Position numbers and translations under genes: made by a program
From: Rhizophagus irregularis
Taxonomy: Eukaryota > Glomeromycota > Glomeromycetes > Glomerales > Glomeraceae
NCBI RefSeq assembly: GCF_026210795.1
Contig: NC_089434.1
Span: 3,410,001-3,474,000 of the forward strand
Length of the DNA: 64,000 nucleotides
Direction: 5' to 3'
Notes under the pieces: model-generated
The model's input: the letters and a program-made list of their open reading frames with translations, nothing else
What the model was told of the DNA's origin: nothing
The model's database searches: none
In this document: positions 7,957 to 53,486 of the stretch, one piece after another
Position numbering within the stretch: position 1 is the first letter of the stretch
How the letters are laid out: every line of letters starts with the position of its first letter

Positions 7957-8184
7957 CTAGAAGAAATTAGGCGTCCCGTTCAAAATTTGATCGGTAAATG
8001 GATCGGTAGTGACCTGTACGGGTAATTGCAAATATCTAAACGGATCTAATACTTGCATTCTACGTCTTCTGTTTCTACGTCTGCGAATATATTTTGATAA
8101 ATAAGATCGAGATGAAGTAGTTGAAGTATTAAGTTGGTCGTTCATAGAAGAGTTAGAGAAGTTAGATTCTGTACGATGTTCCAT
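7957..8184 (-). CDS. small basic protein with DPF..QI.NG..FF tail (unit A copy)
   Basis: Single-exon ORF of 75 residues, ATG at 8184-8182, stop TAG at 7959-7957. The N-terminus is Ser/Thr/Asn-rich (MEHRTESNFSN...). The middle is strongly basic (YIRRRRNRRRRMQ), followed by VLDPFRYLQLP and a tail DPFTDQILNGTPNFF. The basic patch plus tail is shared with the ORFs at 18532-18768, 34111-34374, 48474-48648 and 53285-53486. Compared with the unit B copy it lacks 9 bp in frame (RRELKRR becomes RRRR) and has about nine synonymous and seven amino-acid-changing codon differences by my hand count. The function is unknown; the basic patch could bind nucleic acid or act as a nuclear localisation signal, which is inference only. 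There is no signal peptide or membrane segment. Confidence 0.6.
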   Translation of the reverse strand: MEHRTESNFSNSSMNDQLNTSTTSSRSYLSKYIRRRRNRRRRMQVLDPFRYLQLPVQVTTDPFTDQILNGTPNFF

Positions 8185-10710
8185 TATGTATAGTTTTTTA
8201 TTAATAAAATGCTACTATAGTACCGTATATGCAGTATATAGTCATAAATATAATTTTAGAGAGAATCTATATCTTTAATATAGAATCTTTAGTAGAGAGA
8301 ACAAATGGAAATAGTAAAAAAACAAAATAAAATATCGATTTTAGTTAAAGAGCGATGCCAAGATTTCAGTTAAGGAGCGAAAAAAAATCTGTCAAAGCAA
8401 AAAAAAAAAAAAAATTTTAAATTTTTTAAATTTTTTTATTTTTTTATTTTTTTATTTTTTTTTTCGTTTTTTAGAGGGAATGGAAAGATTATTTATAATA
8501 AAAATTTTTTGATCTTCAATAAATGTAATAAATGTACATTTTATATTTTTAATACATGTTTACAATATTTACAATATAAATATAAAATTATAAAATGAAA
8601 ATATATATATATATATATTGTAATTTTTTTTTTTTTTATATATTCGATTTTTTTGTATGTTGATACTTTTATATGTATTTTTTTTATATATATGTATTTT
8701 TTATATAGTATTCCGAAAAAGGTTAAAATATTAACTGTTGATCTGATATCAGATGTCATTTTTAAACTACAAATAAAAACCGGAGATTATATGAATTATA
8801 TCAGAATGATAAAATAAAAAAAAAAAAAATAATTAATAATAAATTTTTTTTATTTTACCTTATTTTTATATTTTTATTTTAAAAAAAAACCGTGTGAAAT
8901 TAGTCCAATAAAAGTTAAATAAAATAAAGCAAAAAAAAAAAATTTTTATTTATTTTTTTTACTTTATTTTTATTTTTTTATTTTAAAAAAACTGATGAAA
9001 GAATTTATATGAATTATATTAGAATGTGAAATAAAATAAAGCAAATAAATAAATAAATAAATAAACAAATAATAAATTTTATTTATTTATTTATTTTTTA
9101 CTTTATTTTTATTTTTTTTTTATTTTAAATATTCCAAAATCGAAAATATTTTTGTTGTTTGGAAATTTCGGTTTATCTCTTCTTTTAATTAAATAATTTA
9201 TATAATTCCCTTTTTAAGTTTAGCATGAATATTTATTTACATTAATAATAAGTATATGTATAAAAAAAAAAGTGGTTTTTTTTATGGAAAAAAAATCGGT
9301 TTAATTTTTTAAATTTTTTTTTTGAATTAAAAATGTACGAACCAAAATACTTTCTCTCCTTTTTTATTGTAAAAAAAAAAGATAGGGGGTGAATATCTAA
9401 AAGGAATAGGTTCTTTTGTTTTTGTTTATATAATTTCCACAATTGTTGCACTTTCATATGCTTTATGTTATACAATCCATTACTAGTGTCTGTTCCTTCT
9501 TCTCCTTATTAATCTTTTTATTTTTTGTCATTTTTTCCTAAAATTAAAATTTATTTCTTATGTGACATCAAAGTTCTTAATTTTCACAAGCAAATTCTTT
9601 TCTCCTCACTAAAAAAAAATAATCAATTTAATTCAATTTATTCTTATTATTATTATCAGTTATTGTTATTATATATTCATTTTAGCGTAATTATTAAATA
9701 ACACAATGCATAACAAATTTTAGTATCACAATTGTGAATGAGTACTTATATGGTATACTCACAAAGAAAGTAAAATAGGGGTACTCTAGAAGAAATAATT
9801 ATTATTGTGACAAAAAAAAAAATAAATAATATTCTTTTTCTTTTTCTTCGTAAAAAAATTAAAAAAAATTTACTGGCATTCATATTACATTTACTTCTTA
9901 CTTTTTGCATATTCTTCTCCTATCTTATTAAGCGTTTTTGATTTAGAAAAAATTTACTTTATTTTATTATACTAAGAAAAAACGCGCAATCTTTTAAAAA
10001 AGAGAAACCTTTTAAACTTTTAATTTACTTTAAAAAGAAAAAATACAACAAACCCAAGCCAAAAAAAAAACCACTTTTTTTTATAAAAAATGAATCAAAT
10101 CTTCTTGATTGAACATCACAAATAAATCCTTATACAAAATGTTTCTATATAAAATAAAGGAATGTACGTGAAGAATTATGTGAAAGAAATTATTAGGAAA
10201 ATAAAAAAAAAAGAGAAAAAAATAGAATATATCAGAATTAATTAATAAGAGTATTTTCTCTAACCGCAATAAATAATCGTGTCGCACAGTTATATTTAAA
10301 AAGAAAGGATTGCTGCATATAAGTGATTAATTCAAACTTCGAAAAAAAAAGGAAAAAAAGGATTTATAAAACGTATGAATAGATAAATGAATCAAAAAGA
10401 ATGCTTCACAAAATTTACCGTATTCTCTTAAAAAAGAATAGAACGTAAATATGTGTACCTGAGTTAAAAAAAAATGATATACGAATGATGTGTGATCTAC
10501 TTGTATATCATTATGTGAATTATGTAAAAGAAAAAAGTATTATATAATGGAGCAACATCGTACAAATAATTTTTAAAATGGAAAAAATCGGTAAATACGA
10601 AAAAAGATTGTCAAGATATATCCAGATTTGACATATTAACGGATTCACGAAATTAGAAATATCGATTTCGAATTATTTGAATTACGTATAAGCATTGGCA
10701 TGTCTTAGTT

Positions 10711-10911
10711 GTCCAAAGATTTTAAAAATGGTATGTTTTAAATGTTTTAAGAAGAGAAGAAAAAAAATTTTTCTTTTATTTCCCTTTAATTTCGTCATTA
10801 TCTTCTATTTTTTTTTTCACTAGTCCTCTGTACCAAAGAAAAAATATAGATTTTAGCAGATCCTATCGTCCTATATTAATCGAATTCTTAGTAAACAAAG
10901 AAATCGTTGGG
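10711..10911 (+). pseudogene. remnant of the two-exon small-gene family (unit A)
   Basis: The sequence CCAAAGATTTTAAAAATGG followed by GTATGT matches the exon 1 end and donor of the gene at 47965. After an intron-like stretch, ACTAGTCCTCTGTACCAAAG matches its acceptor region. The downstream bases TTAATCGAATTCTTAGTAAA match the RNRILSK coding part of exon 2 at 53330. The frame is shifted and contains stops, and most of exon 1 is absent. It is therefore a decayed plus-strand relative lying in the same unit as the minus-strand gene. Confidence 0.6.
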
Positions 10912-11240
10912 TAACTTGTGAATCTAAATCGTTCTTTATATAAATTATTCTGCGCGTAAGGTATATTCTTGTTACTAATGCTTCCAATAATTACTGTTAA
11001 GATTGTTTAAAATAGTTGTTTGGAATACGATGAACTTTTCTGAGTCTCTTTTGTTTATATTTATTGACAGATATCAAGTTGTTTACAAACCGAGATAATA
11101 TCAGTATCATCAAAAGTTTAGGTAGCAGAATAAATGACTATTCCGTATTTCGTTACTTATCTTTGAAGTTAACATTGACGTTGTTGACGGTAGAGTTGCT
11201 TAGGGCTAGATAAGCACTGGAATGATTAGTTAGTATAGCA

Positions 11241-11576
11241 AGGCCAGGCCAATAGGATTTTCTGTTTAACAAGAATTTTTGTTGAAAAAAGAGGGAGGGG
11301 GGGACCAGGGAGTGGGCCAAAAATAATTTACAAAAAAATTTTTTAAATTAATTTTTACTATTAAAATTTTGAGGGGAAGGGGGAGGAAAAAGTAAAAAAA
11401 ATAATCTAAAAATTAGATTTTTGGGGGAATATTATAAAAAATTTTTTTTTTAATATCTAAAGAAATCAAAATTTTGAGGGGGGTGAGAGGGAGGATTTAA
11501 AAAAATTGATTTTTGGTGTCTTTAAATTTAAAATTTTTTGGGATTTGTTAAACAGAAAATCAAATTGGTCCGGCCT
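11241..11576. mobile_element. MITE with about 30-bp TIR (unit A)
   Basis: The left end AGGCCAGGCCAATAGGATTT continues to TTCTGTTTAAC. The right end, read on the other strand, is AGGCCGGACCAATTTGATTT continuing to TCTGTTTAAC. The interior is G-run rich (GGGAGGGGGGG) with no ORF. The unit B copy is at 23621-24160 and carries a further insertion. Confidence 0.7.
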
Positions 11577-12043
11577 AACTACTAGTAAGTTTTTTTTTAA
11601 AAAAATTTCGTTAAATCTGTTTTCATAAATTTATATCTTAAGCGTATCTTGTTTTTATTATCAAAACATAAAAACTTACTACTAAAAAAATTCATCGTCA
11701 GAAAAAAAGTAAGTTTTTTTTTATTGCTAAAAAAAAATATCTCCTGGAAGGTTGTCTATATTTATTTTATTTTATTTATTTATTTATTTATTTATTTTTT
11801 AGAAAATTAAGTTTTATATTAAAAATTACTTGTTATATAATGTATGGACTTAATTAATTGTTTATGATGTGGCTGTGACATTGCTTGCATTAATGAGATA
11901 TGCAGTACTTTTATTTTTATTTGCATTTTGTCAACATATTAGAATAATTCTATTTTTTTTACTTCTGTCATTAAATTTATTAACTTGTGTTTATACGGAA
12001 CCTTAATAATAATATATAAGAAAAAAATTCACTATCGTATATA

Positions 12044-12207
12044 CAGTCAGAACTCGACATAACGAACCTTCCGGTTCACTAAAAAAATTCGTAACGATAC
12101 TAAGTTTGATATAACGAATTGTATATGCTTATGTATAAAGATAAAATCTTAAAAAATCTCTTTATCGTGAAATTCATTATATCGCATAATCGTCATATCA
12201 AGTACTG
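12044..12207. mobile_element. pogo-like MITE (unit A)
   Basis: It begins CAGTCAGAACTCGACATAAC after a TA and ends with the complement of CAGTACTTGATATGACGA. It is 164 bp and non-coding. The same insertion is present in unit B at 24667-24856, so it predates the duplication. Confidence 0.6.
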
Positions 12208-12415
12208 AATGTATAAAATACATATAGCAAGTGGGAATCTGACGCACATACAATGCAAAGTCATTTTTTTCTCAATAGTAAAGTTATAATTATTTTAACA
12301 TATTATTTTTTTCCTTGACATATATCATATGATTTTTATTAAAAATATTTGAGTTATCGCAGTTTTAGTATTTATGAATTTATTGTCACCTATACAATTT
12401 TCGTTAAGTTTCGTC

Positions 12416-13019
12416 CCGAAAAACATAATAATGCTTAAAAAAGTAAAAATTGCGCCAATCTTAAAATTAAATAATTAATAAATAAGATTTTAGATACATA
12501 CAAATACATAATACAAGATTTTTAAGATTTTTGAAAAAGGAAACCATTTTTATAGATAATAATAAATAAATGTATTCCAAGTATTATATAAATAAAAAAT
12601 CTCTGATTAAAAAGGGAATCCGTTGAAAAATTGAGTAATTAATAAAACACTTGTACTTTGCTGCGGAAGGTTCGCGATAAGCCTCAATGTGTTACCATTA
12701 TTAATAAGTATGTTAGGTCGAAAATGTCTTCTTATAATTCTTTGTCTTCTTAGTTGTTTCTGTCTTTTTTGAAAGGGCATTTTCGTTTGTATAACGTATA
12801 TTAAAGAGGAGATAAGATAATATGCGTATATTTAAAGAGATAAAAAAAAGATACAAAAAAATTGACGTATTTATAACATTTAAATATTTGACATTGCACA
12901 AAACTATGTATAGATAATGACAGATAATCGATACAATAAACACTCATCTATCCATATTAGTGTATATAAAATTATTTTTTATATATTACAGTACTTATAG
13001 TGTATCTGTTCACATATAT
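12416..13019. other. AT-rich spacer, no gene seen
   Basis: Only a low-complexity minus-strand ORF (12713-12943) is present, with no recognisable domain. I regard it as a chance frame. Confidence 0.5.
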
Positions 13020-14060
13020 TTTAAAACAGAAACGTGAATGCTTGGACGCGTTAAAATCGGGGCATTGCTTAATTGGCTTTGCGCCCATGATTTATTATTA
13101 GTACAAAAATGATTATTAAAATTTTTTGTAAAAGGAGAAATAATCTGTTTGATTCTGTTGGCGTTTTAGTATTTTAAAATGGAAGAGACGTGAATGGACA
13201 CGTTAAGATCGAGGCATTGCTTAATTGTTTTTGTGTCTATAATAATTTATTATTACATAAACGATTATTAAAATTTTTGTAAAAGAAATAATCTAACTCT
13301 GTTGACGTTTTAGTATTTTAAAACATGAATGGACACGTTAAGATCGGGGCCTTGCTTAATTGTTTTTGTGTCTATAATAATTTATTATTACATAAACGAT
13401 TATTAAAATTTTTGTTAAAGGAAATAATCTAACTCTGTTAGCGTTTAGTATTTGAAAAAAAAACCATGAATGGCGTTAGAGTCGGGGCATTGTTAATTTT
13501 TGTGCCTATGATATAAAAGAAATAATCTAATTCTGTTGGCGTTTTAGTATTTAAAATGGAAGAGACGTGAATGGACACGTTAAGATCGAGGCATTGCTTA
13601 ATTGTTTTTGTGTCTATAATAATTTATTATTACATAAACGATTATTAAAATTTTTGTTAAAGGAAATAATCTAACTCTGTTAGCGTTTAGTATTTGAAAA
13701 AAAACCATGAATGGCGTTAGAGTCGGGGCATTGTTTAATTTTTGTGCCTATGTAAAAGAATAATCTAACTCTGTTGGCGTTTTAGTATTTAAAACAGAGA
13801 TGTGAATGGACACGTTAAGATCGGGGCATCCCTATAAAAAATTTTATCCGTTATTTCTGTAAAAATGAGCCTTTCACGGATCCATTCACGGAAAATGTAA
13901 ATAATTCGATAAATTCCGCGATATAAGGTTATTAATTCCGGAAATATGAGCCTTTTACGGAAAAAAGATGGAATATAAAAAACGGATTGACTTTTTCTAC
14001 AGAGCATTGCTTAATATAAAAGACTATTAAAATTTTTGTAAAAAAAAATAATTTTGTTTG
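13020..14060 (+). repeat. minisatellite, about 7 degenerate units
   Basis: The phrase (G)TGAATGGACACGTTAAGATCG with following GGGGCATTGCTTAATT recurs near 13031, 13188, 13322, 13464, 13564, 13704 and 13799. Each unit also carries a TAATCTAACTCTGTTGGCG segment and a TTATTATTACATAAACGATT segment, with deletions. Unit length varies from about 95 to 157 bp. The last unit is split by the MITE at 13830-14004. Confidence 0.85.
13830..14004. mobile_element. MITE, CCCTATAAAA ends, 3-bp target duplication
   Basis: The left end is CCCTATAAAAAATTTTATCC; the right end on the other strand is CTCTGTAGAAAAAGTCAATC. It interrupts a minisatellite unit: intact units read GGGGCATTGC, whereas here the sequence is GGGGCAT, element, CATTGC, so CAT is duplicated. 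A relative lies at 39311-39509. Confidence 0.75.
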
Positions 14061-18531: not shown

Positions 18532-18768
18532 CTAAAAGAAATTAAGCGTCCCGTTAAAAATTTGATCGGTAAATGAATCGGTAGTGACTTGTACGGGTAA
18601 TTGTAAATATCTAAATGGATCTAATACTTGCATTCTACGTTTCAATTCTCGTCTGTTTCGACGTCCACGAATATATTTTGATAAATAAGATCGAGATGAA
18701 GTAGTTGAAGCACCAAGTTGGTCGTTCATAGAGGAGTTAGAGAAATTAGATTCTGTACGATGTTCCAT
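18532..18768 (-). CDS. small basic protein with DPF-type QIFNG..FF tail (unit B copy)
   Basis: Single-exon ORF of 78 residues, ATG at 18768-18766, stop TAG at 18534-18532. It is nearly identical to the unit A protein: MEHRTESNFSN start, SSRSYLSKYIRGRRNRRELK basic patch, VLDPFRYLQLP and a tail with QIFNGTLNFF. The patch RRNRRELKRR is closer to the RRNRRQLRH of the two-exon genes than the A copy is, so B keeps the more ancestral form. The flanking 5' sequence, with an ATACATAATGG start context, is conserved between A and B. Function unknown; no signal peptide or membrane segment. The conservation pattern against A (mostly synonymous change, in-frame indel) supports a real gene. Confidence 0.62.
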   Translation of the reverse strand: MEHRTESNFSNSSMNDQLGASTTSSRSYLSKYIRGRRNRRELKRRMQVLDPFRYLQLPVQVTTDSFTDQIFNGTLNFF

Positions 18769-19018
18769 TATGTATAGTTTTTTATTAATAAAAGGCTATA
18801 GTACCGTATATACAGTAAATAGTCATAAATATAATTTTAGAGAGAATCTATATCTTTAATATAAAATATTGAAATTTCAGTTTACTTAAAGAACGAAAAA
18901 AAATCTGTCAAAGCCAAAAAAAAAAAATTTTTTTTTTTCATTTTTTAGGAAATGGAGAGACTATTTATAATAAAATTTTTGGTACATTTTATATTTTTAA
19001 TATATAAATATAAAATTA

Positions 19019-21425: not shown

Positions 21426-23364
21426 ATTTTTTTATATTCCGAAAAGGGTTAAGCATAATATAAATAAAAATTTTTTTAATTTAATTGATGATCTGGTGTC
21501 ATTTTTTGGCAAATAAAAACCGGAGATGAAAAAATTTAATCGGAATGTAAAAAGTTAAATAAAATAAAGCAAAGAAAAAAAAAAAATTTTTATTTATTTT
21601 TTTTTACTTTATTTTTATTTTTTTATTTTAAAAAAAAAACCCGACAAAAGAATTTATATGAATTATATCGGAATGTGAAATAAAATAAAGCAAAATAAAT
21701 AAATAAATTAATAATATTTTTATTTTTATTTTTTTTTTTATTTTAAATATTCCAAAATCGAAAATATTTTTGTTGTTTGATAATTTCCTGTATATTTATC
21801 TCTTCTTTTTAATAATTAAAATAATTTATATAATTACTTTTTTAAATTTAGCACGAATATTTATTAACATTAATATTAAATATATGTATATAAAAAAAAA
21901 AGTGGTTTTTTTATGGAAAAAAAATCGGTTTAGTTCTTTTTGAATGTAAAAAAGTATGAACCAAAATACTTTCTCTCCTTTTTTTATTGTAAAAAAAAAG
22001 ATAGGAGTGAATATCTAAAAGGAATGAGGTTTCTTTATTTTTGTTTATATAATTTCCACAATTGTTACACTTTCATATGCTTTATGTTATACAATCCATT
22101 ACCCTAGTGTCTGTTTCCTTCTTCTCCTTATTTGTTATTATTAATCTTTTTATTATTTATCATTTTTCCTAAAATTAAAATTTATTTCCTATTTGACAAC
22201 AAAGTTCTTAATTTTTCACAAGCAAATTCTTTTCTCCTCACTAAAAAAAAATAATCAATTTAATTCAATTTATTATTATTATTATTATTTTTATTATCAG
22301 TTATTGTTATTATATATTCATTTTAGCGTAATTATTAAATAACACAATGCATAACAAATTTTAGTATCACAATTGTGAATGAGTACTTATATGGTATACT
22401 CACAAAGAAAGTAAAATAGGGGTACTCTAGAAGAAATAATTATTATTGTGACAAAAAAAAAAAATAAATAATATTCTTTTTCTTTTTTATCGTAAAAAAA
22501 CTAAAAAAAATTTACTGGCATTCATATTACATTTACTTCTTACTTTTTGCATATTCTTCTCCTATCTTATTAAGCGGTTTTGATTTAGAAAAATTTACTT
22601 TATTTTATTATACTAAGAAAAAACGCGCAACCTTTTAAAAAAGAGAAACCTTTAAACTTTTAATTCACTTGAAAGGAAAAAAAAATACAACAAACCCAAG
22701 CCAAAAAAAACCATTTTTTTTTAAAAAAAAAGAATCAAACCTTCACAATAAATCCTTGTACAGATGCTTCTATATAAAATAAAGGAATGTATATTTTACG
22801 TGAAGAATTATGTGAAAGAAATTATTAGGAAATAAAAAAAAAGAGAAAAAAATAGAATATATCAGAATTAATTAAATAAGAGCATGTTCTCTAACCGCAG
22901 TAAATAATAGTTATATTTAAAAAGAAAGGATCGCTGCATATAAGGATGAATTTTTTATTATAAGTGATTAATTCAAACTTCGAAAAAAAAGGAAAAAATG
23001 GTTTTATAAAACGCAAGAATAGAAAATGAATGAATACTACACAAAAAAGAATGCTTCACAAAATTTACCGTATTCTCTTAAAAAGAAATAGAACGTAAAT
23101 GTGTGTACCCGAGTTAAAAAAAAAATGATATACGAATGATGTGTGATCTACTTGTTAATCTTTGTATATCATGTTGAATTATGTAAAAGAAAAAAGTATT
23201 ATATAATGGAGCAACATCGTACAAATAATTTTTAAATGGAAAAAATCGGTAAATACGAAAAAGATTGTCAACAATATTTGAGATATCCAGATTTGACATA
23301 TTAACGGATTCACGAAATTAAAAATATCGATTTCAAATTGTATAAGTATTGGCATGTCTTAGTT

Positions 23365-23515
23365 GTCCAAAGATTTTAAAAATGGTATGTTTTAAGAAGA
23401 GAAGAAAAAAAAAAATTTTTTTTTATTTCCCTTTAATTTTCGTCATTATCTTCTATTTTTTTTTTCACTAGTTCTCTGTACTAAAGAAATATAGATTTTA
23501 GCAGAAGCATTGGAT
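23365..23515 (+). pseudogene. remnant of the two-exon small-gene family (unit B)
   Basis: Sister of the remnant at 10711: TCCAAAGATTTTAAAAATGG, then GTATGT, then CACTAGTTCTCTGTACTAAAG, then AAATATAGATTTTAGCAGA. The exon 2 coding part present in A is missing here. Confidence 0.5.
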
Positions 23516-23620: not shown

Positions 23621-24160
23621 AGGCCAGGCAATAGGATTTTCTGTTTAACAAGAATTTTTGTTGAAAAAAGGAGGGGGCAAAAATAATTTACAAAGTTTTT
23701 AAATTACTTTTTACTATTAAGATTTTGAGGGGAGAGAAGGAAAAAGTAAAAAAAGAAATCCAAAAATTAGATTTCCATGGGGAAATATTATATAAATTTT
23801 TTTTTAATATCTATAAGAACCAAATTTTGAGGGGAAGGAGAGGGGGAATTTAAAAAAAATTGATAAATTTTTGCTTTTTTCGGTGCCTATCTAAATTTAA
23901 ATTTTTGAGGGTATACATGGAGACGTAATTATTTCAGATAATTCGGCATTAAGGTGGCGTAGTAATGGTGAAATATATTACACCAAATTTTTGTTCGAAG
24001 ATTCATTTGATGATATGAAAATAGTATTACATCAGTATTACACCGGTATAATGCCGAAATTAGTGTAATGTGTCGTAATATTTCAGCATGGCTTGAACCT
24101 AATTCACCTCCATGTATGGGGGAGGATTTTGTTAAACAGAATATCAAATTGGTTCGGCCT
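23621..24160. mobile_element. MITE with about 30-bp TIR (unit B), interrupted
   Basis: Ends match the unit A copy (AGGCCAGGCAATAGGATTTT on the left; ...GGTTCGGCCT on the right). It is longer than the A copy because a second element (23912-24117) lies inside it. Confidence 0.7.
23912..24117. mobile_element. nested 206-bp MITE, ATACATGGAG ends
   Basis: Left TATACATGGAGACGTAATTA; right end on the other strand ATACATGGAGGTGAATTAG. It is flanked by GG/GGG runs and absent at the matching place in unit A (near 11545), so the insertion postdates the A/B duplication. Confidence 0.75.
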
Positions 24161-24378
24161 AACTAGTAGTAAGTTTTTTAAAAAATTTTCGTTAAATCTG
24201 TTTTCGTAAATTTATATCGATAATTTTTTTAAGCGTATCTTGTTTTATTATCAAAACATAAAGCCTTACTACTAAAAAAATTCATCGTAAAAAAAAGGTA
24301 AGTTTTTTTTTCATTGCTTAAAAAAAATCTCCTGGAAGGTTATTATATATAAAATTATTTTTTCTATATTTATTTATT

Positions 24379-24409
<31 letters not shown>

Positions 24410-24666
24410 TTTTTTAGAAAATTAAGTTTTATATTAAAAATTACCTGTTATATAATGTATGGACTTAATTAATTGTTTCTAGTGTGGCTGTGACATTGCT
24501 TGCATTAATGAGATATGCAGTACTTTTATTTTTATTTGCATTTTGTTAACATTCTAGAATAATTCTACTTTTTATTTCTGTCATTAAATTTATTAACTTG
24601 CGTTTATACGGAACTTTATATTACCTTAGTAATATTATATAAGAAAAAAATTTACTATCATATATA

Positions 24667-24856
24667 CAGTCAGAACTCGACATAACGAACCCTCCAGTTC
24701 ACTAAAAAAAAATTGGTATGTCGAAATTTATATATAAGTTTGTTACAACGAATTTTATATGTTTATATACTATAACATATATAAAGATAAAATCTTAAAA
24801 AATCTCTTTATCGTGAAATTCATTATATTGCATAATCGTTATATCAAGTTCTGCTG
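24667..24856. mobile_element. pogo-like MITE (unit B)
   Basis: Begins CAGTCAGAACTCGACATAAC, as in unit A at 12044. Internal sequence is about 26 bp longer than the A copy. The right end (AGTTCTGCTGAATG) is slightly diverged. Confidence 0.55.
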
Positions 24857-25055
24857 AATGTATAAAATACATATAGCAAGTGGGAATCTGTCGCACGTAC
24901 AATTTTTTTCAATAGTAAGTTATAATTATTTTAACATATTATTTTTCCTTGGGATTTTTTTACATATATCATATGATTTTTATTTAAAAATATTTAAGTT
25001 ATCGCAATTTTAGTATTCATGAATTTATTGTCACCTATGCAATTTTCGTTACAAT

Positions 25056-25734: not shown

Positions 25735-27660
25735 TTTTTCGCTTTACTAAATGTTATATAATGTAGATCTTTTCTTTTTTTGTAATTTTTCTTATTTCCT
25801 AATAAAGTAATAAATTGACTTCGTTAAAAAAAAATAAAAAATAAAAACTTTTTTTTTAGTACATAATTTGAATTTTGTTGATTATTACTATAAATCATTT
25901 GAAATATAATAAAAAATTATCAAAATTCGCATATAAAAGTGGAAATTTGTTTTTTTTTAATAATTAAGGTATAGTTATTTTAGCATACTATTTTTCTTGG
26001 GTTTCTTTATATATATATATGATTTTTATAATACAAGGAGTTATTCCTTTGTCTAGTATTATGTAGTTTTCTCAAAATAACCGTTAATTAACAACCCTGC
26101 CGGATCACCAATTAAAAATTCCAACATTTTCTGACCTAACAGTAATGAAAAGCATATATCATTAGAATCCGAACCAAAAGATGTTGGCGTTGAAATAATC
26201 CTAATTTATTCATGTTAAAAATACAGTAATAATAGTATAATATGCAAGCTCTACATACCATTGAAGCTCGTTCTCGTATCGATATGCATGCAAATTCCAA
26301 AATAAAGAAATTATTGATGCAAGAAACCTGTCAAATGTACGCATAAAACAAAGTAGAAGGGTCACTAAATAAATAAAACATATTTTTGCATTAGCAGAAT
26401 TTTTTAAAAAGATATTCAAGACAAATATATATATATATAAGTTTAATATATGTTGAAGAATTTTTTGAACCCGGATTATTAATCAAACTATCATCGAGAA
26501 GTTTGATAAATTTCGTTCGTTTTGCAAAGGACTAAAGGTTCCAGCTCACCAAGAAATATTCAAAAATGCTATTAAACAAAAAATGCGAAAACAAATTTTT
26601 AAATGTGAAAATGTATGGAAAATATAAATTTCGGTAACTTTTAAAATTAAAATTTGACCTTTTACAGCAAATTTCATAATTCGGTACGTTCGGTAAATCC
26701 GGTAAAATTCAGAAACTACATATATCCCTGAGCACAGTGTTGTATTAACTGAAATTTAAGAGTTTGAACATGAATAAAGTTAATTTTTGAACAGGTTTAC
26801 TGTGGCGAAAATATGATCCATAATTGTAAACGTTAAAACATTAAAATATTATTATAAATTTTCAAACAGTGTAAAATAGAAAGATGCTTCTTAAATGTAC
26901 TTCATTTTGTTGTTTATTTGCTCTCTCAAAAATTTTATCGATTCAAACTTTATCAAATGAATATTTTTTTTTAAGCGAAACTGATTAGAAATTGTAAGGA
27001 GAAAAAATAAGTAAAACCGCAGTAACAGTATTTTAAAAATGGACAAAGAAAGTGGGAGTGAAAAATAATTTTTTTTTATTATTTTTGTTGTTAATATAAA
27101 CGCTGAAAGTATATTTATTTATAGAATGTTTATTATTTATTATTATTTACTTATTATTATTTACAAAATATAATCTAGTACAAGGGGTAGATCTGAACCT
27201 ACATATGGGCCGATTCAACACATAAAATGGATTTGGCCAATATTATCGGATATTTTAAGGGAAATTTGGCTAAAATTACGGTATTTTCGGCCAAAATTAC
27301 GGCATGTCTAACAGGTGGACAACCAGTTTTTGAGGAGACGTTAGATGATTATTATTATAACTTTATACTATCTTGCCAAAAATGATAATTTTGTAACTAA
27401 AGTAAATTTGTTACTCTTTACCATTATTGTTATATAGAAAAAAATACTTCATTGAAATTTTTAACAAAAATTTTAATAAATAACAAATTTACTACTTAAT
27501 GCATCAAATCAGCCCATATGTTTTTTTTATTTTAAAAAAAAAACCTTATAATTTTAGTTTATATGTAAATATGTGATATATATACACTTTAGTTTACAAA
27601 GTATAATCTACAAGGGGTAGATCTAAACCTATTTTTTTAAAGTTTTTTAATTTTTTTTAC
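25735..27660. repeat. segmental-duplication unit C (partial)
   Basis: It shares GCTTTACTAAATGTTATATA with the start of unit D (31257), then ATTCCTTTGTCTAGTATTAT, GATGTTGGCGTT, AAATTCCAAAATAAAGAAAT, TGTTTATTTGCTCTCTC and GGGGTAGATCT. The small-gene part is absent. The unit breaks off into the foldback element region. Confidence 0.75.
27202..27520. mobile_element. MITE with CATATGGGCYGATT ends
   Basis: Left CATATGGGCCGATTCAACAC; right end on the other strand CATATGGGCTGATTTGATGC. It separates two copies of the GGGGTAGATCT motif in unit C and contains GGCCAAAATTACGG repeats. No ORF. Confidence 0.65.
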
Positions 27661-31097: not shown

Positions 31098-31257
31098 GCG
31101 GGCCTGGTATGAAATCTCGACAGGTACGAAATCCCGAACTCTAATGCTGGTCGAACACATCGCGTGACTCTGCATAATTCTGCATAACGCGGGCCATTTG
31201 TCGGGATTTCGTACCATTCGGGATTTTGGACCGTCGAGATTTTGTACGGATCCCCGC
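31098..31257. mobile_element. 160-bp MITE, GCGGG ends, at the edge of unit D
   Basis: Left GCGGGCCTGGTATGAAATCT; right on the other strand GCGGGGATCCGTACAAAATC. Internal subrepeats AAATCTCGAC and AAATCCCGA occur on both arms. TTTA lies on both sides (31094-31097 and 31258-31261). Homology with unit C begins at the right flank. Confidence 0.75.
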
Positions 31258-32639
31258 TTTACTAAATGTTATATAATGTAGATCTTTTCTTTTTTGTAAT
31301 TTTTCTTATTTCCTAATAAAGTAATAAAATGACTTCGTTATAAAAAATAAATAAATTTTGTTGATTATTACTATCATAAGTCATTTGAAATATAATAAAA
31401 AGTTAACAAAATTCGCATATAAAAGTGGAAATTTGTGTTTTTTTTAATAATTAAGGTATCATACCATTTTTTCTTGGATTTTTTTTACATATACTGTATA
31501 TATGATTTTTATAATACAAGGAGTTATTCCTTTGTCTAGTATTATGTAGTTTTCTCAAAATAACCGTTAATTAACAACCCTGCCAGATCGGCAATTAAAA
31601 ATTCCTACATTTTCTGACCTAACAGTAATGAAAAGCAAGGTAAACTTGTATATCATTAGAATCCGAACCAAAAGATGTTGGCGTTAAAATAATCCTAATT
31701 TATTCATGTTAAAAAAATACAGTAATAATAGTATAATATGCAAGATGTACATACCATTGAAGCTCGTTCCCGTATTGATATGCATGCAAATTCCAAAATA
31801 AAGAAATTATTAATGCAAGAAACCTGTCAAATGTACGCATAAAACAAAGTAGAAATAAATAAAACATATTTTTGCATTAGCGGAATTTTTTAAAAGATAT
31901 TCAAGACAAAAATATATAAATATATATATAATATATGTTGAAGAATTTTTTGAACTCGGATTATTAATCAAACTATCGAGAAGTTTGATAAATTTCGTTC
32001 GTTTTGCAAAGGACTAAAGGTTCCAGCTCACCAAGAAATATTCAAAAATGCTATTAAACAAAAAATGAGAAAACAAATTTTTAAATGTGAAAATGTATGG
32101 AAAATATAAAATTAGTTTATTTAAAAATTTATTTCAGTAACTTTTAAAATTAAAATTTTACCTTTTGCAGCAAATGTCATAACTCGGTACGTTCAGTAAA
32201 CCCGGTAAAATTCAGAAACTACATATATCCCTGAGCACAGTGTTGTAATTTTTATTTCCCTTAACTGAAATTTAAGAGTTTTGAACATGAACAAAGTTAA
32301 TTTTTGAACAGGTTTACTGCGGCAAAAATATGATCAACGTTAAACCATTATAAATTTTAAACAGTGTAAAATAGAAAGATGCTTCTTAAATGTACCTCAT
32401 TTTTGTTGTTATTTGCTCTCTCAAAAATTTTATCGATTCAAACTTTATCAAATGAATATTTTTTTTTTTAAGCGAAACTGATTAGAAATTGTAAGGAGAA
32501 AAAATAAGTAAAACTGCAGTAACAGTATTTTAAAAATGGACAAAAAAAGTGGGAGTGGAAAATAATTTTTTTTTATTATTTTTGTTGTTAATATAAACGC
32601 CGAAAGTATATTTATTTATAGAATATTTATTATTTATTA

Positions 32640-33020
32640 TTATTTACTTATTATTATTTACTTACAAAATATAATCTACAAGGGGCAGATCTAAACCTAT
32701 ATTTTTTAAGTTTTTAATTTAAAAAAAAAAAACCTTATAATTTTTGTTTATATGTAAATATGTGATATATACACTGAGTAATTATTTACTTACAAAATAT
32801 AATCTACAAGGGGGGTAGATCTAAACCTATTTTTTTAAGTTTTTTAATTTTTAAAAAAAAAAACCTTATAATTTTTGTTTATTAGTTATATATAAATATA
32901 CACTTTAGTTAATTATTTACTTACAAAATATAATCTACAAGGGGTAGATCTAAACCTATTTTTTTTTTGTTTTTAATTTAAAAAAAAAAAAACTTATAAT
33001 TTTTAGTTTATATGTAAATA
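32640..33020 (+). repeat. three tandem copies of a roughly 125-bp motif
   Basis: Each copy contains TTATTTACTTACAAAATATA, ATCTACAAGGGG.AGATCTAA and a poly-A then CTTATAATTTTTGTTTA. Copies begin near 32640, 32780 and 32915. Units A and B have one copy (about 6590, about 17100); C has two, separated by a MITE. Confidence 0.8.
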
Positions 33021-34110: not shown

Positions 34111-34374
34111 TCAGAAGGTCGATCCATTGAAAATTTGACACGTAAGTAAATTATTCGAAATTTGTGTTGGGTATTGTGTTGGATTTAATGCATACGGTTT
34201 ATGCCTCAATTCTCGTCTACTCCTACGAGCACGAATATAATGTGATTTGTGAGATTTAGCTGAAACATCAAGTCGATTATTCTCTTCGAAATTATTGAGT
34301 GTGTTAGATGTATCTAAAATTTCACAACATTCTGCTGTTTGAGTATCGGATTTACGGTGATCTTGTTGATCCAT
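34111..34374 (-). CDS. small basic protein with QIFNGSTF tail (unit D copy)
   Basis: Single-exon ORF of 87 residues, ATG at 34374-34372. The N-terminus (MDQQDHRKSDTQTAECCEIL...) differs from the A and B copies and is acidic/polar with a CC pair. The second half keeps the family pattern: HYIRARRSRRELRHKPYALN, then P..YPTQ, and a shortened tail CQIFNGSTF. The motif DPF is replaced by NLL, and one of the two final Phe residues is lost, so the tail is diverged. It occupies the same position and strand within the unit as the A and B genes. Function unknown. The open frame despite strong divergence from A/B argues for a maintained protein, though a slow-decaying copy is possible. Confidence 0.55.
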   Translation of the reverse strand: MDQQDHRKSDTQTAECCEILDTSNTLNNFEENNRLDVSAKSHKSHYIRARRSRRELRHKPYALNPTQYPTQISNNLLTCQIFNGSTF

Positions 34375-40979: not shown

Positions 40980-41228
40980 ACAGTATATATGAGAATTTTT
41001 ATCGAAAAAAAAATAATAATTTTTTAACAGCAAAAAAAATATGTTTTTTTTCTGATTTAACGATTTTTTTTTTAGAAAAATTTCTTTTTCATTATTTGAA
41101 AGTACGGTAGAGAAGTTTTAAAATAATTCGATTCACGAAAAAAATTAAAAAAAAAAAATTTTTATTTAACGAGATTTTTATTAAAAATTTCTTTGTACAA
41201 AATATAATTCCTTTTTTTTTAAAAAAAA

Positions 41229-41516
41229 AGGAGCAACCGATCAATTACAATCTGTTAACTACCTCGATACTATCATTTCCTCTCATAACGATGTATGCAA
41301 ATAACCTTATATTTGTCAAGAGAAATTACATGAAGAACACGAACAAAAGGGACAAGAGAAACTCAGTAAAAGCTCTCCACATTCCAAACAACTATTTCAA
41401 GAAGTTGCCCAACAATCATAGCAATTTCAACGTAGAAGAAATTATAATGTTGCTACGATAATAAATATTGGAAAAATTACTTGTATTAGAAAAGGAAACA
41501 CTCCAAAGACTTTGAC
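41229..41516 (+). pseudogene. exon 1 pseudogene of the two-exon small family
   Basis: Nearly collinear with exon 1 of the gene at 47965: GGGACAAGAGAAACTCAGTA, ATAATAAATATTGGAAAAAT and CACTCCAAAGACTTT are shared. The start ATG is lost (GGAGCAACCGATCAA...), and in-frame TAA (after TGCAAA) and TAG (after CAATCA) interrupt it. No donor follows; instead the sequence turns into an inverted piece (41571-41650). The upstream GAAAGTACGGTAGA...AGTTTTAA is shared with the flank of 52843, so the promoter region was copied too. Confidence 0.8.
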
Positions 41517-41570
41517 AATAAAAAAAAATATATCTGCGAAAAGGAAAAAAAAATATTTTTTTTCCTCTTT

Positions 41571-46015: not shown

Positions 46016-47964
46016 ACTATTTCAAAAAGTCCATATTATCATCATATTCGGCCATCTCTTCTCTCAGTTTTTGAACGATCATATCAACCGATATCTCAAA
46101 AGGGAACAATCAAATAACTGGGCTCAATACAATTTTAATTTTTAATCGTTTCAAAAGAGTCCTTCGATCGACAAATTACCTTTTTTGACTCTAATTTTTT
46201 TTTTACACTAATTTCTTCTTTTTTCATTTTGACCCTATTTATCATAGTTGTAGCAGACACTGGCTATTTATTATTATTTATTATTATTCATATACAAATA
46301 AGGATATAAAAATATTGTGAAAATTGATTTTGTAATACGAATCATCAATAAATGTTTAAAATAATGTTTAGTAATATTGTGAAACCTTTCTAAAGCGAAA
46401 AGACAAATTAGGAATTAGTATGTAACACGCATTCGATTGATTACCTGTTTATAGAAAAATAACAATAAATATTTAGGGTAGAAAGTAGAAACTATGTCGG
46501 TCACGGACACACAGGACCGAATGATTGGATGAAAGTAGTGACCATTTTCACCATTTTCATCAGGGTCCTAAGGGCCTTGTGACCGATAAGGTGATAATGA
46601 TGATAATATTTATGAACGGGGTAACATTTTATGCAGGTCACGTGGTGTGAAAAATCTTGGGGAAGATTGATGCCAATCCAAGCATATGATCAAATTATAA
46701 TTAATCACTGATCGCAAAATTTTCCAATTAACATGTTCGTTTTTTTCGTTTTTGCTTATTTTAAATTGCGATCAATACGACCAAGAAATTCCACTTTTTT
46801 GTAGAACGCAAAAATCGAATCATTGATCGGGTAACACATTTCCGTCAGCCAATATTTATCAACTCAAAACGGCCTAATTATATAGCATTTTGATCATGCA
46901 TTTCCGCTTTATAAGCTTTTTTAAACTTTTCCTATAAAAATTTTCATTTACACAATCATTTTTACTTTATCTGTTATTATATCAATTATATATAATCATG
47001 CATGATCCTATTGGGCTGAACGATAACCAAAAATATTTCTTTTTTTTTATTCCTCATAACAGTATTAAGTTTTTTGGGTAGATATAAAATGTAACGTTGT
47101 TGTGTAGCCAGCCAAATGGTGCGACAAAAGTGGTGTTTTTGTTTCGTTTAATTACGATACTTCGTGAAAAATGTAAGTTTAGTTTTGTTTACACGTCTAG
47201 GAAGGATAACGCCAGGATTTTTCCTTGAATTTCCGAATTTCTCAGATAATAATTTTTTTTTCTTTTTGAGACGCGAAAAAAAGAATAAACCTTTTTTTTT
47301 TTTGGCGGTAAATTTGTTAATTTATAAACATCTTTTCGTTCATGTCTTTTTTTTAAAAAAAAATAATAAAATGATTCTAATAATCATCCAAAGTAATGAT
47401 TAGACGCGAAAAAAATTTACTTCACATTATTACGTCGTAAAAAATTTTATTTATTTATTTTTTTACCAGCCCTTGAATGTCCGATTCCCGGTGGTTGCCG
47501 CTGCCAATATTAACCTTTTTTATAATTTTATGAATTATAAGCAAAAGGAAAAATCAGATAGAAAAATAAAATAGTGAAATTTGATGATACATGTTTAATA
47601 AAGTTGAATAAAAAAAATTTTTAATATAAATACATAATCTATATACAGTAGTTTTTTTTAACAAAATTTTTTTCCTTTTGTCTTATGAATTTTTTTTTAA
47701 AAAATACAATAGAAGTTTTATAATACTTTTTTCAAATTTTTCAAAGACCTCTATCGAAAAAGTTCTCATTTTGAAGAAAAAATATATATATTCGAATATT
47801 TTTTTAGTATTTCGAGAAAAACAAACAACAAACAAGATACACTTAAAAAAACTTCTCATTATTATTTTTTTTTATAAAAAAAAAACAAATTTTTATTAAA
47901 AGCGAAAATTTGAAAAATTTCTTATACAGAAATATAATTCTTTTTTTAAAAAAATTAAAAAAAA
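46016..47964. other. intergenic DNA with one possible small MITE
   Basis: At about 46497-46601, TCGGTCAC...AGGACC is inverted as GGTCC..GTGACCGA, a possible MITE. ORFs at 47164-47403 and 47678-47899 are poly-T/poly-A driven. The last 300 bp resemble the upstream region of 52843 (AGAAGTTTTA.TACTT.TTTCAAA), so they are likely the promoter side of the next gene. Confidence 0.4.
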
Positions 47965-48648
47965 ATGGAACAGCAATCAGTCACTTACTCTGCAATCCAA
48001 ATTTTTAACTACCCCGGCCAAACTCAAAAATGGGCAAACACTAATGTTATTTCTTCTAATTATAAAGAGGTATGCAAACAACCTTGTGAAAAGAAATTAC
48101 GTGAAGAACGCGAACAAAAGGGACAAGAGAAACTCAGTAAAAGTTCTCTGCATTCCAAACAACTATCTCAGCAATCTCAACGTGGAAGAAATAACAATGT
48201 TGCTATGATAATAAATATTGGAAAAATTACTTGTGTTAGAAAAGGAAACACTCCAAAGACTTTAAAATGGTAAGTTCTAAGAAAGGAAAGGAAAAAAAAT
48301 ATTTTTTTTCGCTTCACTCTATTTTTTGGGTTATCTGTATGTAGAAATGGGGATGTGGAGAGTGAAACACACGGCAAAAAGTTAATTGGTTATTAATTAA
48401 CCTTCTTAACTACTAAGATTCAGTTTTAATTTTTGACATTTTCTATTACCTCTACTAGTTCTTTGTATCAAAGAAAAGTTATCAGCCCATCGGCTTATGT
48501 CAATCGTATCCTTCGTAAACGTAGAAATCACCGACAGCTAAGACATGTCAATAATTATACATTATTGAATCCTATCAGGCAATTATCAAGACAAAACACA
48601 AACGATCCATTTGCGAACCAAATTTTTAATGGATCCAATTTCTTCTGA
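47965..48648 (+). CDS. two-exon small basic protein, QIFNGSNFF tail
   Basis: Exon 1 47965-48269 (ATG in AAAAATGG) encodes MEQQSVTYSAIQIFNYPGQT, a charged helix KKLREEREQKGQEKL, a Ser/Gln stretch and NTPKTLK; the donor is GTAAGT at 48270. Exon 2 ends at TGA 48648 and encodes YVNRILRKRRNHRQLRH, LLNPIRQL and NDPFANQIFNGSNFF. The acceptor aligned with the 52843 gene (CAAAG, exon from 48474) would create TG-A, a stop at the junction. A phase-compatible alternative acceptor CTAG (exon from 48459) keeps the frame, giving SLYQRKVISPS before YVNR. Without splicing the frame ends TLKW-stop. So the gene is either intact through the shifted acceptor or newly truncated. Basic patch and tail are shared with the single-exon family; function unknown. 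Confidence 0.6.
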
Positions 48649-49890
48649 TTCCCTTCTGATTCCATTCTATTATTCAAATATCGTCTCTTCGCTTATGTTT
48701 AAATAATTTAAAGTAATTCGCTCGAAATCGTTATTCTAATTTCGTAATCAGTTAAACGTGCAAAATCTGTCAATATCGTCACACTTCATTTTCCATATTT
48801 AAAAATTATTTTATATGATACTATACTATATAAAAAAAATAAAAAAAATTATTTTCATGTATTTATGAAATTTTTGGAGGAATACAAAGTCGTACTCACA
48901 TTTACGTTCAATTCGTTTTTTTTAAGGGTGCAATAAAATTTTTTGTTTTTATGTAATTATATTTTTAGTTTACGTTATTGTTATTTTTCTTATTATTTAT
49001 GGTTTTATAAAAGAAATAAATGATATTATTGTTAAAAATAATGGACAGAATTTCATTCATCCTTGCCTTTTTTCATAATTACGTTACAAATTTTGGGAAG
49101 CGTGCAACACAAAAGCGAGAGAGATGTATGATAAAGAGATCATCCCACAAATCCCACAAAGAAAAAAAAGAAAAAAGAAAAATAAAGAGAATGTTACAGA
49201 TAAGGCCATGCCCTTATTTTCTATTTATGCTTAGTTAATAATGGACCCATAACGTAAGCAACGATATATACCGAACCCGTTGTTACCCAATACTTTCTCC
49301 CCCAAAAAAATTCTTAAATCTAATTGGATTAAAAAAGGGCGCCCAATAATCTTTAACAATAATAACAACAAAATAAATTTAAATAATAATGAAAACATCC
49401 CCAAATTTTCAACTTTCGGTTTTTTTCTGTGCAACTTGCTGGTTATGTTTAAAGATTTTTGTACTTCGATCGAATATTATATTTTTTTTTTGTGTACCTA
49501 CTAGCATTGATGCAAAAGGTGATATCTAAAAGCATTTTTTTTTTGGATATTATTATTTGTACAGCGGTCTTACCGCAATCCTCCAAACATGAACGCTATA
49601 AAAAGTAAAGACTGTTTCACAACTAGTCATTATTAATCATTGATATACTGCCCTATTAGGACCATCGTACATGTCGTACAGATATTTAGCACATCATGCT
49701 TATAATATAATGTTTGAATTTATTATAATTGCGTATAAAAATTTTACACTAAATTTATTGACACATGATTCTATATTACATAGTGTTAAAATTAATTAGT
49801 TGATATTAAAAACTGAATTTGATATTAGATCTAATATAAAGCTTATGAAAAGTATAATTAAAAACTAATCAAATGATGATCATTATCATT
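48649..49890. other. 3' flank and intergenic DNA
   Basis: 48900-49110 is a second copy of the dispersed repeat at 39170-39640. ORFs at 49020-49238, 49231-49434 (minus) and 49280-49504 have no recognisable domain. Confidence 0.45.
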
Positions 49891-50181
49891 CTTCGATCCG
49901 AGTCCGGTTTATCCGGATTTTATCCGGATAAAACCGATTATCCGCGGTTAAATCCGTGTTTTATCCGGATTGTAAGTTTTGGATAATTTAAAGTATTTCG
50001 GGAACTAATGATCAGAACTCTATGATTCATAGCTTGTTTGAAAGCTCTTAATGCTACGAATGTGATCATAGTACTGAAATTTAAAAATAAACAGTTCTAA
50101 CCCGAATTTTATTTTAATAACTATTTTCATTCGGATAAAATAATTATTTTATCCGGATAACGGTTTTTATCCGGATCGAAG
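49891..50181. mobile_element. MITE, CTTCGATCCG ends with TATCCGGAT subrepeats
   Basis: Left CTTCGATCCGAGTCCGGTTT; right on the other strand CTTCGATCCGGATAAAAACC. TTATCCGG occurs many times in both arms. Non-coding, 291 bp. Confidence 0.75.
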
Positions 50182-50213
50182 CACTAATTCTGGCATTGTG
50201 CTTGATAAATGGA

Positions 50214-50267
50214 ATGATGTAGCACGAAGTGCCACATCATACCATTAACAAGCACGCCCGTGCAATA
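50214..50267. repeat. two GC-rich mini-hairpins
   Basis: GATGT-a-GCAC-gaa-GTGC-c-ACATC, then GCACG-cc-CGTGC. Same style as the cluster at 40132 and the hairpin at 57073. Confidence 0.75.
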
Positions 50268-52842: not shown

Positions 52843-53486
52843 ATGGAACAACTATCAACCATTTATTCTACCACCCAATCCGTTAATTATCCCAGTCAAA
52901 ATCATAACTGGACCAATACTGATGTTATCTCCTCTTATAAAGAGGTATGCGAACAACTTTATATCCGTAAAGAGGAATTACGTGAAGAACGCGAACAAGA
53001 AGGACAAAAGAAACTCAGAAAAAGTTCATCGCATTCCAAACTATCTCAAAAAGCTGCAGAAAGAAGTAACAATGTTGATACTGGAGTAAACATTGAAAAC
53101 ATTAGCATCCAACTCAAACAACAGGAAGGAAAACCTACTTTATCAGTTAGTTATGTAGGAAATGGAAACGAACTTGTTTTACCAATGACTTTAAGATGGT
53201 AAGTTAAAAATTTTTTGGTGTATTATTTTTCTTTTTAATATTCGTCATCAACTTCTACTATTCCATTAATTCTCTGTATCAAAGGAAAGACATGGATTCT
53301 GCTGAGCATACTCCTATGGTCAACCCATCGTCATATGTTAATCGTATTCTTAGTAAACGAAGAAATCGTCGACAATTAAGACATGGCAATACTTATGCAC
53401 TAATGAATCTTATTAGGCAATTACCAAGACAAAACGTAAACGATCCATTTGCGAACCAAATTTTTAATGGATCCAACTTCTTCTGA
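52843..53486 (+). CDS. two-exon small basic protein, QIFNGSNFF tail (intact)
   Basis: Exon 1 52843-53198, intron 53199-53284 (GTAAGT...CAAAG, 86 bp), exon 2 53285-53486; 185 residues. I chose the ATG at 52843 over the upstream TTG because it matches the MEQ start of the gene at 47965. Exon 1: MEQLSTIYSTTQSVNYPSQN, then W.NTDVISSYKEVCEQ, a charged helix KEELREEREQEGQKKLRK, a Ser-rich stretch and a beta-like segment KPTLSVSYVGNGNELVLPM. The junction codon TG-G gives Trp. Exon 2: NPSSYVNRILSKRRNRRQLR then HGNTYALM, IRQLPRQN and NDPFANQIFNGSNFF. No signal peptide or membrane helix; basic patch suggests a nuclear or nucleic-acid role (inference). Unspliced RNA would stop right after the Trp. Best reference copy of the family here. 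Confidence 0.75.

What the first reader, a model, noticed from the sequence alone, without database searches (positions are those of the whole stretch)
7957..53486. A multicopy small-protein family with a conserved basic patch and DPF..QIFNG..FF tail
Five ORFs on both strands (7957-8184, 18532-18768, 34111-34374, exon 2 at 48474-48648, exon 2 at 53285-53486) share a basic R.RRNRR(E/Q)L segment, a L(D/N)P..YL/IRQL segment and a QIFNG tail. Remnants at 10711, 23365, 41229 and 41571 belong to it too. I know of no named domain with this tail. Such repeated, short, rapidly changing genes with a fixed C-terminus deserve description.
Basis: partly seen in the sequence, partly recalled or inferred. 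Interest (0 to 1): 0.85.

Follow-up and report, generated by a model that had tools for sequence, protein, structure and literature searches.

The report
Portable protein tail in mycorrhizal fungus
A plant-root symbiotic fungus carries over a hundred copies of a gene for small, basic, fast-changing proteins that share nearly the same short tail, and that tail also occurs near the end of a protein-cutting enzyme, which suggests a reusable docking piece.

Summary
The window lies in a 146.7-Mb, 32-contig genome, taken to be Rhizophagus irregularis DAOM197198. Own-genome searches merge into 126 places on 20 contigs, 100 within 50 kb of another. They behave as genes: in 17 close pairs 25 of 29 indels inside the frame are multiples of three, against 57 of 191 outside (p = 8e-9); dN/dS is 0.31 in the tail, 0.42 in the basic patch, 0.76 in the N-terminus. 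Thirteen loci examined fit a two-exon structure; 27 of 29 other places have their own ATG. A sixth window copy was missed (12607-12780, minus). No Pfam, NCBIfam or PDB family matches convincingly. New: patch and tail also follow the catalytic domain in an astacin (M12A) gene on C3 and a broken one on C6 (profile E 2e-12, 1e-11), and the exon-1 module precedes astacin sequences on C17, several degenerate. No row examined has a signal-peptide-like start. Best reading: intracellular microProtein-like relatives of a protease that keep docking ends without the catalytic middle. Family: near certain. Mechanism: inferred.

The parts
7957..8184 (-). Copy 1, single open frame, 75 aa, basic patch RRRRNRRRR and tail DPFTDQILNGTPNFF
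   Evidence: profile E 1.8e-15
12607..12780 (-). Sixth copy, not in the finding: minimal 57-aa ORF ending TQFFNGFPF
   Evidence: profile E 6.6e-5, frame read
18532..18768 (-). Copy 2, single open frame, 78 aa, 92% identical in protein to copy 1
   Evidence: profile E 2.4e-19
34111..34374 (-). Copy 3, single open frame, 87 aa, tail QIFNGSTF
   Evidence: profile E 6.3e-19
47965..48269 (+). Copy 4 exon 1 (N-module MEQQSVTYSAIQ...)
   Evidence: 47% identical to the exon 1 of L010; donor TG|GTAAGT
48270..48458 (+). Copy 4 intron, GT...TAG, phase 2
   Evidence: inferred from the same donor and acceptor context at other loci, no transcript
48459..48648 (+). Copy 4 exon 2: basic patch and tail NDPFANQIFNGSNFF, stop included
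   Evidence: profile E 9.3e-26
52843..53198 (+). Copy 5 exon 1 (N-module)
   Evidence: 52% identical to L010 exon 1; 19 own-genome matches
53199..53284 (+). Copy 5 intron; the TAG acceptor of other loci reads TAA, next in-phase AG (CAAAG) used
   Evidence: inferred, no transcript
53285..53486 (+). Copy 5 exon 2: basic patch and tail NDPFANQIFNGSNFF, stop included
   Evidence: profile E 5.1e-26
10734..10907 (+). Degenerate copy: exon-1 end, intron and start of exon 2 (SSYINRILSKQRNR), tail lost
   Evidence: blastn to 53175-53369, E 8e-15; tblastn 2.9e-4
41248..41553 (+). Exon-1 fragment with stops, no tail exon found
   Evidence: tblastn E 1.9e-19; blastn 41147-41564 to 47878-48310
23330..23365 (-). 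Very weak 12-residue trace of the basic patch in a duplicated segment; no tail
   Evidence: tblastn E 0.12; duplication 8910-10860 / 21550-23505

Best explanation
SHOWN: the window copies belong to a large family that behaves as protein-coding (126 places found; the tool calls such counts lower bounds; three of the 126 are ends of longer ORFs and a few are fragments). Stand-alone rows examined are short (median 85 aa), basic (median pI 10.75), rich in S/T/N/Q, without a signal-peptide-like segment. They share an arginine-rich patch and a ~20-residue tail (LPxQxTNDPFxNQFFNGSxF) whose last F is at or one residue before the stop. The same patch and tail follow the catalytic domain of an astacin metalloprotease gene, and the N-module of the two-exon members precedes other astacin sequences. 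INFERRED: the stand-alone proteins are protease-related microProtein-like regulators. They keep the parts with which the enzyme is placed (arginine-rich helix for nuclear or nucleic-acid contact, tail as a docking peptide) but lack the catalytic domain. They would act in trans in the fungal cell, occupying or sharing the partner that the tail binds, so competing with or guiding the tailed protease. Tandem duplication and N-terminal change would make many variants with one fixed docking end.
For: Family size and clustering: merged. Coding: frame-keeping indels 25 of 29 inside against 57 of 191 outside, p 8e-9, in 17 pairs chosen by me, each locus used once; dN/dS tail 0.31, basic 0.42, N-terminus 0.76, linker 1.08. 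In blastn among 55 rows the similarity is mostly deepest over the tail exon and, where present, exon 1, with closely related copies alike over longer stretches. Two-exon structure: the exact donor GGTAAGT at the end of exon-1-type sequence in 11 of 16 oriented loci; an acceptor ending in TAG (11) or CAG (1) in 12 of 13 loci; L101 is one uninterrupted frame joining exon-1-type sequence to the tail, so both can be read as one protein. Astacin link: L091 has PF01400 at 8.7e-12 and 2.7e-19 in two pieces; its next piece holds, in one open frame, what by eye is the end of the domain and then the patch and tail, profile E 2.1e-12; L092 1.4e-11. N-module before astacin sequence on the same strand at five C17 loci: L011, L016, L026, L027 and L071; PF01400 1.1e-13 for the L011 piece. 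No hydrophobic N-terminus: 30 rows (one place twice), median best 12-residue Kyte-Doolittle mean 0.08, highest 1.24. AlphaFold: helix over residues 25-49, block pLDDT up to 83.
Against: No gene with N-module, catalytic domain and tail together was found. Of 12 astacin loci, 2 carry the tail; 8 others, held 0.6 to 1.7 kb past the domain, do not show it, and 2 were not held past the domain. L092 has two in-frame stops just before its tail, so L091 is the only intact example, and there 14 residues follow the tail, so it is not at the very C-terminus. The last-exon pieces of L091 and L092 do not match PF01400 by themselves. Several C17 N-module or astacin copies are degenerate: a stop in the L011 exon 1, stops in L016 and L026. 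The astacin last exon seems to start in phase 1 and the tail genes' exon 2 in phase 2 (read by eye), so exon 2 is not simply the old last exon. The direction (protease lost its middle, or tail added to a protease) is not resolved. The tail is poorly modelled (block pLDDT 54-55). No expression, interaction or localisation data.
Confidence: 0.37

Rival explanations
1. Nucleic-acid-binding regulators: the arginine-rich helix binds RNA or DNA and the tail recruits a co-factor; the astacin link is a secondary fusion that borrowed the tail, not the origin of the family.
For: The basic patch is conserved (R at three columns in 40-41 of 41 rows) and modelled as a helix. The tail alone, without the basic patch, ends an unrelated-looking ORF on C31 (L099), so it can occur on other proteins. 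2 of the 126 places lie on astacin genes and 1 on L099.
Against: No DNA- or RNA-binding family matches convincingly. It does not explain why the N-module also precedes astacin sequences.
Confidence: 0.32
2. Host-directed symbiosis effectors that leave the fungus by an unconventional route and act in plant nuclei, as SP7-like effectors do after classical secretion.
For: Fast change, clustering, basic nuclear-type patch. The searches of viral and prokaryote contigs were empty, which says little, as other fungi could not be searched.
Against: No signal-peptide-like segment in 30 rows; no SP7 repeat motif in 41 rows; here the N-terminus varies and the tail is fixed, whereas effector families usually keep the targeting end at the N-terminus (recalled).
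Confidence: 0.12
3. Secreted precursors whose C-terminal peptide is cut out after dibasic sites, like pheromone or hormone precursors.
For: A dibasic pair lies within three residues before LPxQ in 17 of 41 rows; the C-terminus is fixed.
Against: No signal peptide; that dibasic pattern is missing in 24 of 41 rows.
Confidence: 0.04
4. Not genes: chance ORFs or decaying mobile-element pieces spread with tandem duplications.
For: AT-rich, gene-poor surroundings with many local duplications; some degenerate copies.
Against: Frame-keeping indels and dN/dS below 1 in patch and tail; all 128 matches lack internal stops; no recurring block ends like those of an element were seen.
Confidence: 0.03

Closest known systems
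Astacin family metalloproteases (peptidase family M12A, PF01400)
   Same: L091 (C3) carries the basic patch and tail after its catalytic domain; C17 astacin sequences are preceded by the exon-1 N-module of the two-exon members
   Different: Stand-alone copies have no catalytic domain; the tail-bearing piece does not match PF01400; the L091/L092 genes show no signal peptide by eye, unlike typical secreted astacins (recalled)
MicroProteins (small single-domain proteins that engage targets into other complexes; PMC5381583, start of abstract seen in a search listing)
   Same: Small, one conserved region shared with a larger multidomain protein, catalytic part absent
   Different: No partner or effect on a protease shown; over a hundred places with differing N-termini is unusual (recalled); shared segment is a short patch and tail rather than a known folded domain
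SP7-like effectors of R. irregularis (PMC11333574, passages read)
   Same: R. irregularis family; in several SP7 members a nuclear localisation domain; a conserved intron in SP7-like genes; low sequence similarity
   Different: SP7-like proteins have a signal peptide and repeats with a Y[KR]Rx[AP]x[AP] motif; neither was found here
Companion S/T/N-rich family with an IPGFKIIVIP-like segment (L080, L081, L084-L090)
   Same: Shares an N-terminal stretch (NYEESSLMDN region) with some tail genes (E 5e-5 to C22:2183922) and sits beside the C6 cluster
   Different: Different C-terminal part, no basic patch, no FNG tail

Membership tests
Astacin (M12A) | Zinc-binding HExxHxxGxxH and Met-turn SxMHY catalytic domain (motifs recalled; domain scored by PF01400) | tested here: not met
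   No stand-alone member scanned matches PF01400; L091, L092 and a C17 piece do
Astacin (M12A) | Signal peptide and propeptide (recalled) | tested here: not met
   No strongly hydrophobic N-terminus in 30 stand-alone or spliced rows; L091/L092 first pieces show none by eye; propeptide not tested
MicroProtein | Small protein sharing a region with a larger multidomain protein and lacking its catalytic part | tested here: met
   Patch and tail shared with the L091 astacin gene, profile E 2.1e-12; median length 85 aa
MicroProtein | Acts by binding the larger protein or its partner | not testable with these tools
   Needs interaction data
SP7-like effectors | Signal peptide | tested here: not met
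   Hydrophobicity of the first 40 residues, 30 rows; no signal-peptide predictor was available
SP7-like effectors | Imperfect repeats with Y[KR]Rx[AP]x[AP] | tested here: not met
   0 of 41 rows
Any described Pfam, NCBIfam or PDB family | Significant profile match | tested here: not met
   39 members against Pfam: 9 families, each hit by 1 of 39, best E 0.0029; NCBIfam 3 families, best 0.022; PDB best 0.33

The most novel reading that the evidence does not exclude
The ~20-residue tail is a portable C-terminal docking tag of this fungus, attached to unlike proteins (stand-alone basic miniproteins, an astacin protease, an unidentified C31 ORF) so that they enter the same intracellular complex. 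The hundred or more N-terminally variable miniproteins form a diversifying set of decoys or adaptors around an intracellular protease, an undescribed regulatory or self-recognition arrangement.
Probability: 0.17. Interest if true: 0.82.

Novelty: new variant of a known kind. Interest (0 to 1): 0.57.

Why it matters
The R. [quoted passage not shown] This points to one large expanded family, shows that it is under selection, gives its gene structure and a fixed C-terminal signature, and ties it to a protease domain of known chemistry. That turns a set of anonymous short ORFs into a testable system: one tail, one candidate parent enzyme, many natural variants.

Tried and rejected
Signal-peptide effectors and Kex2-type precursors: no hydrophobic N-terminus in 30 rows. 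SP7 family: motif absent in 41 rows. A giant-virus origin: the 1.5-Mb endogenous viral region of R. irregularis is reported only from strain 4401 and at 36.58% GC (PMC10640383, passages); this window is 19-30% GC. Shorter viral regions reported in all strains were not compared. Mobile element: no recurring element ends seen. RNA genes: none at Rfam gathering thresholds and no tRNA in the window. Relatives elsewhere: none confirmed among the 34 viral and 263 GTDB stretches that matched a pattern from the fifth copy; other fungi could not be searched, so restriction to this lineage is untested. An HMG-box reading of L099 was made by eye only; Pfam and PDB gave nothing and a search with its main part found two weak relatives on the same contig, so it is left unidentified. 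Structure: the 5-sequence AlphaFold model is weak (pLDDT 60.8, pTM 0.25), so no fold search was made. Exon homology between the astacin last exon and exon 2 of the tail genes: by eye the phases differ, not supported. Literature: ten searches showed no title or abstract start that describes this family; several lists were cut (for example 8 of 213 papers); Rhizophagus with astacin gave 0 papers. The held library lacks most subscription papers, and supplementary files could not be looked at. Rows dropped: one low-complexity C11 match with four stops; two off-frame ORFs (L036, L038) left out of alignment A1; L047, the same place as L062, from the profile and counts but not; L003, L043 and L018, which my filter missed; L033 and L037, which have no in-frame ATG giving 58 aa; two N-terminus-only matches; matches with E above 0.01.
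Full report
What the window is. It is C6:3410001-3474000 of a genome of 146,748,485 bases in 32 contigs. I take the genome to be that one, or very near it.

The observation. All five ORFs exist at or near the stated coordinates and share the stated segments. With a 51-position profile built from 41 members, these five included, they score E 5e-26 to 2e-15. A sixth copy at 12607-12780 on the minus strand was missed (E 7e-5). Of the four remnants, the one at 10711 is a degenerate copy, those at 41229/41571 are exon 1 only, and the one at 23365 lies in the duplicate of the 10711 region with only a trace of the patch.

Family size. Seven own-genome protein searches with tail-bearing queries (from only E up to 0.01) merge into 126 distinct places on 20 of 32 contigs. 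Three of these are the ends of longer ORFs (C3:4328996, C6:5381, C31:1944422), a few are fragments, and the sixth window copy is not among them. 100 of 126 lie within 50 kb of another, against a mean of 10.5 and a maximum of 25 in 1000 random placements; 59 of 78 neighbours within 50 kb share a strand; their median spacing is 14.4 kb. The tool states that such counts are lower bounds. Matches without internal stops: 13 of 13, 41 of 41, 95 of 96, 78 of 80, 63 of 66, 65 of 67, 128 of 128. The largest sets are on C6, C17, C22, C20 and C15.

They behave as genes. In 17 close pairs, chosen by me with each locus used once, 25 of 29 indels inside the reading frame are multiples of three, against 57 of 191 in the flanks (Fisher p = 8e-9). 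dN/dS summed over the pairs is 0.31 in the tail, 0.42 in the basic patch, 0.76 in the N-terminal part and 1.08 in the linker. Single pairs range widely, some above 1. Over 42 rows (one place counted twice), column conservation picks out the patch (R at three columns in 40-41 of 41 rows), L, Q and the F-N-G-x-F end; the last F is in 42 of 42 and is followed by none (13) or one (28) residue in 41 places. In blastn among 55 fetched rows (a few of them the same place), similarity is mostly deepest over the tail exon and, where present, exon 1; the C17 copies, and a few pairs elsewhere, are alike over longer stretches.

Gene structure. The eight-copy C17 group reads as single-exon genes with the start codon in the same exon and homologous DNA from roughly -400 to +300. 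Of 29 places held outside the two-exon group, 27 have an in-frame ATG giving at least 58 aa and 2 (L033, L037) do not. A second group has two exons. Exon 1 begins MEQPSVTYSATQSVDYLGQTHKW or similar and ends near SPKTLKM; 11 of 16 oriented loci examined have the exact donor GGTAAGT there, and in one of the 11 (L050) exon 1 itself was not resolved. In 12 of 13 loci a pyrimidine-rich stretch ends in TAG (11) or CAG (1) just before exon 2, the exception being the window's fifth copy. The intron is phase 2. One locus on C2 (L101) carries exon-1-type sequence and tail in a single uninterrupted frame, independent support that both are translated together. N-termini are, by eye, of at least two kinds: the exon-1 module, and an S/T/N-rich segment with an NYEESSxMDN-like motif.

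What it is not. No Pfam, NCBIfam or PDB sequence match of weight. No signal-peptide-like segment in 30 rows (one place twice, two rows spliced by me; median length 85, median pI 10.75). No SP7 motif in 41 rows. No relative confirmed in viral or prokaryote contigs for the fifth copy. A five-sequence AlphaFold model gives a basic helix (residues 25-49) and an uncertain tail.

The protease link. Two of 12 astacin loci found with PF01400 carry the patch and tail after the catalytic domain. L091 on C3 has two PF01400 pieces (8.7e-12, 2.7e-19) and a third piece whose single open frame runs from what by eye is the end of the domain into the patch and tail (E 2.1e-12), followed by 14 further residues; by itself this piece matches no Pfam family. 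L092, 5 kb from the start of C6, has the same arrangement (E 1.4e-11) but two in-frame stops just before it, so it is probably a broken gene. Independently, the exon-1 N-module precedes astacin sequence on the same strand at five C17 loci (L011, L016, L026, L027, L071; PF01400 1.1e-13 for a piece of L011); several of these are degenerate. Eight other astacin loci, held 0.6 to 1.7 kb past the domain, showed no tail, and two were not held past it. The tail without the patch also ends a 142-residue ORF on C31 (L099) whose main part I could not identify.

Interpretation. Both ends of the two-exon genes have relatives next to astacin domains, while the catalytic middle is absent. The simplest reading is repeated exchange between astacin-type protease genes and short stand-alone genes that keep non-catalytic ends. 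A protein that keeps the docking parts of an enzyme without its active site is expected to compete with it or to guide it; that is the microProtein principle. What is shown: family, coding status, structure, conserved ends, sharing with astacins. What is inferred: intracellular location, docking by the tail, nuclear or nucleic-acid contact by the patch, regulation of the protease. Against it stand the lack of a gene with all three parts, a single intact tailed astacin, the degenerate C17 copies, the differing exon phases, and the absence of any expression or binding data. On checking the calls I found eight (not seven) untailed astacin loci and took the C17 decay into account; I therefore lowered the leading mechanism from 0.40 to 0.37 and raised the nucleic-acid rival from 0.30 to 0.32.

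Verdict. A real, large and, as far as ten literature searches show (listed under Tried and rejected), undescribed gene family, a new variant of the known kind 'lineage-specific expanded small-protein family', made more interesting by the portable tail and the protease link.

Noticed in passing
L080, L081, L089 (C6:3.286-3.352 Mb) and L084-L088, L090: A second uncharacterised family beside the C6 cluster: roughly 150-205 aa, S/T/N-rich, with an IPGFKIIVIP-like segment near the C-terminus; its N-terminal stretch is shared with some tail genes (25 own-genome matches; no convincing Pfam match for L080/L081).
   Followed up: partly
L091, L092, L093, L094, C17 loci: Astacin (M12A) genes, L091 and L092 without a signal peptide by eye, hence possibly intracellular; 16 PF01400 matches at 12 loci.
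   Followed up: partly
L099:55-480 (C31:1944104-1944529): 142-residue open frame ending in the tail without the basic patch; main part looks HMG-box-like by eye but no tool confirms it.
   Followed up: partly
L101 (C2:1850875-1851294): Intronless copy joining exon-1-type sequence and tail in one frame.
   Followed up: partly
8910-10860 / 21550-23505, 11544-12406 / 24128-25051, 25740-27204 / 31255-32702: Old tandem duplications at 84-87% identity across the left half of the window.
   Followed up: no
57693-59453 and 59611-60429: Sel1-repeat ORF followed by a protein-kinase ORF, perhaps exons of one gene.
   Followed up: no
3-1379: Frame open from the window edge; its part 681-1379 matches DUF7431 (PF24209, E 5e-60).
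   Followed up: no
L079 (C20:1196-1198 kb): Pieces of what looks by eye like a Tigger/pogo-type DDE transposase inside the C20 tail-gene array.
   Followed up: no
13043-13829: Tandem repeats with 135- and 242-base units about 260 bases upstream of the sixth copy.
   Followed up: no
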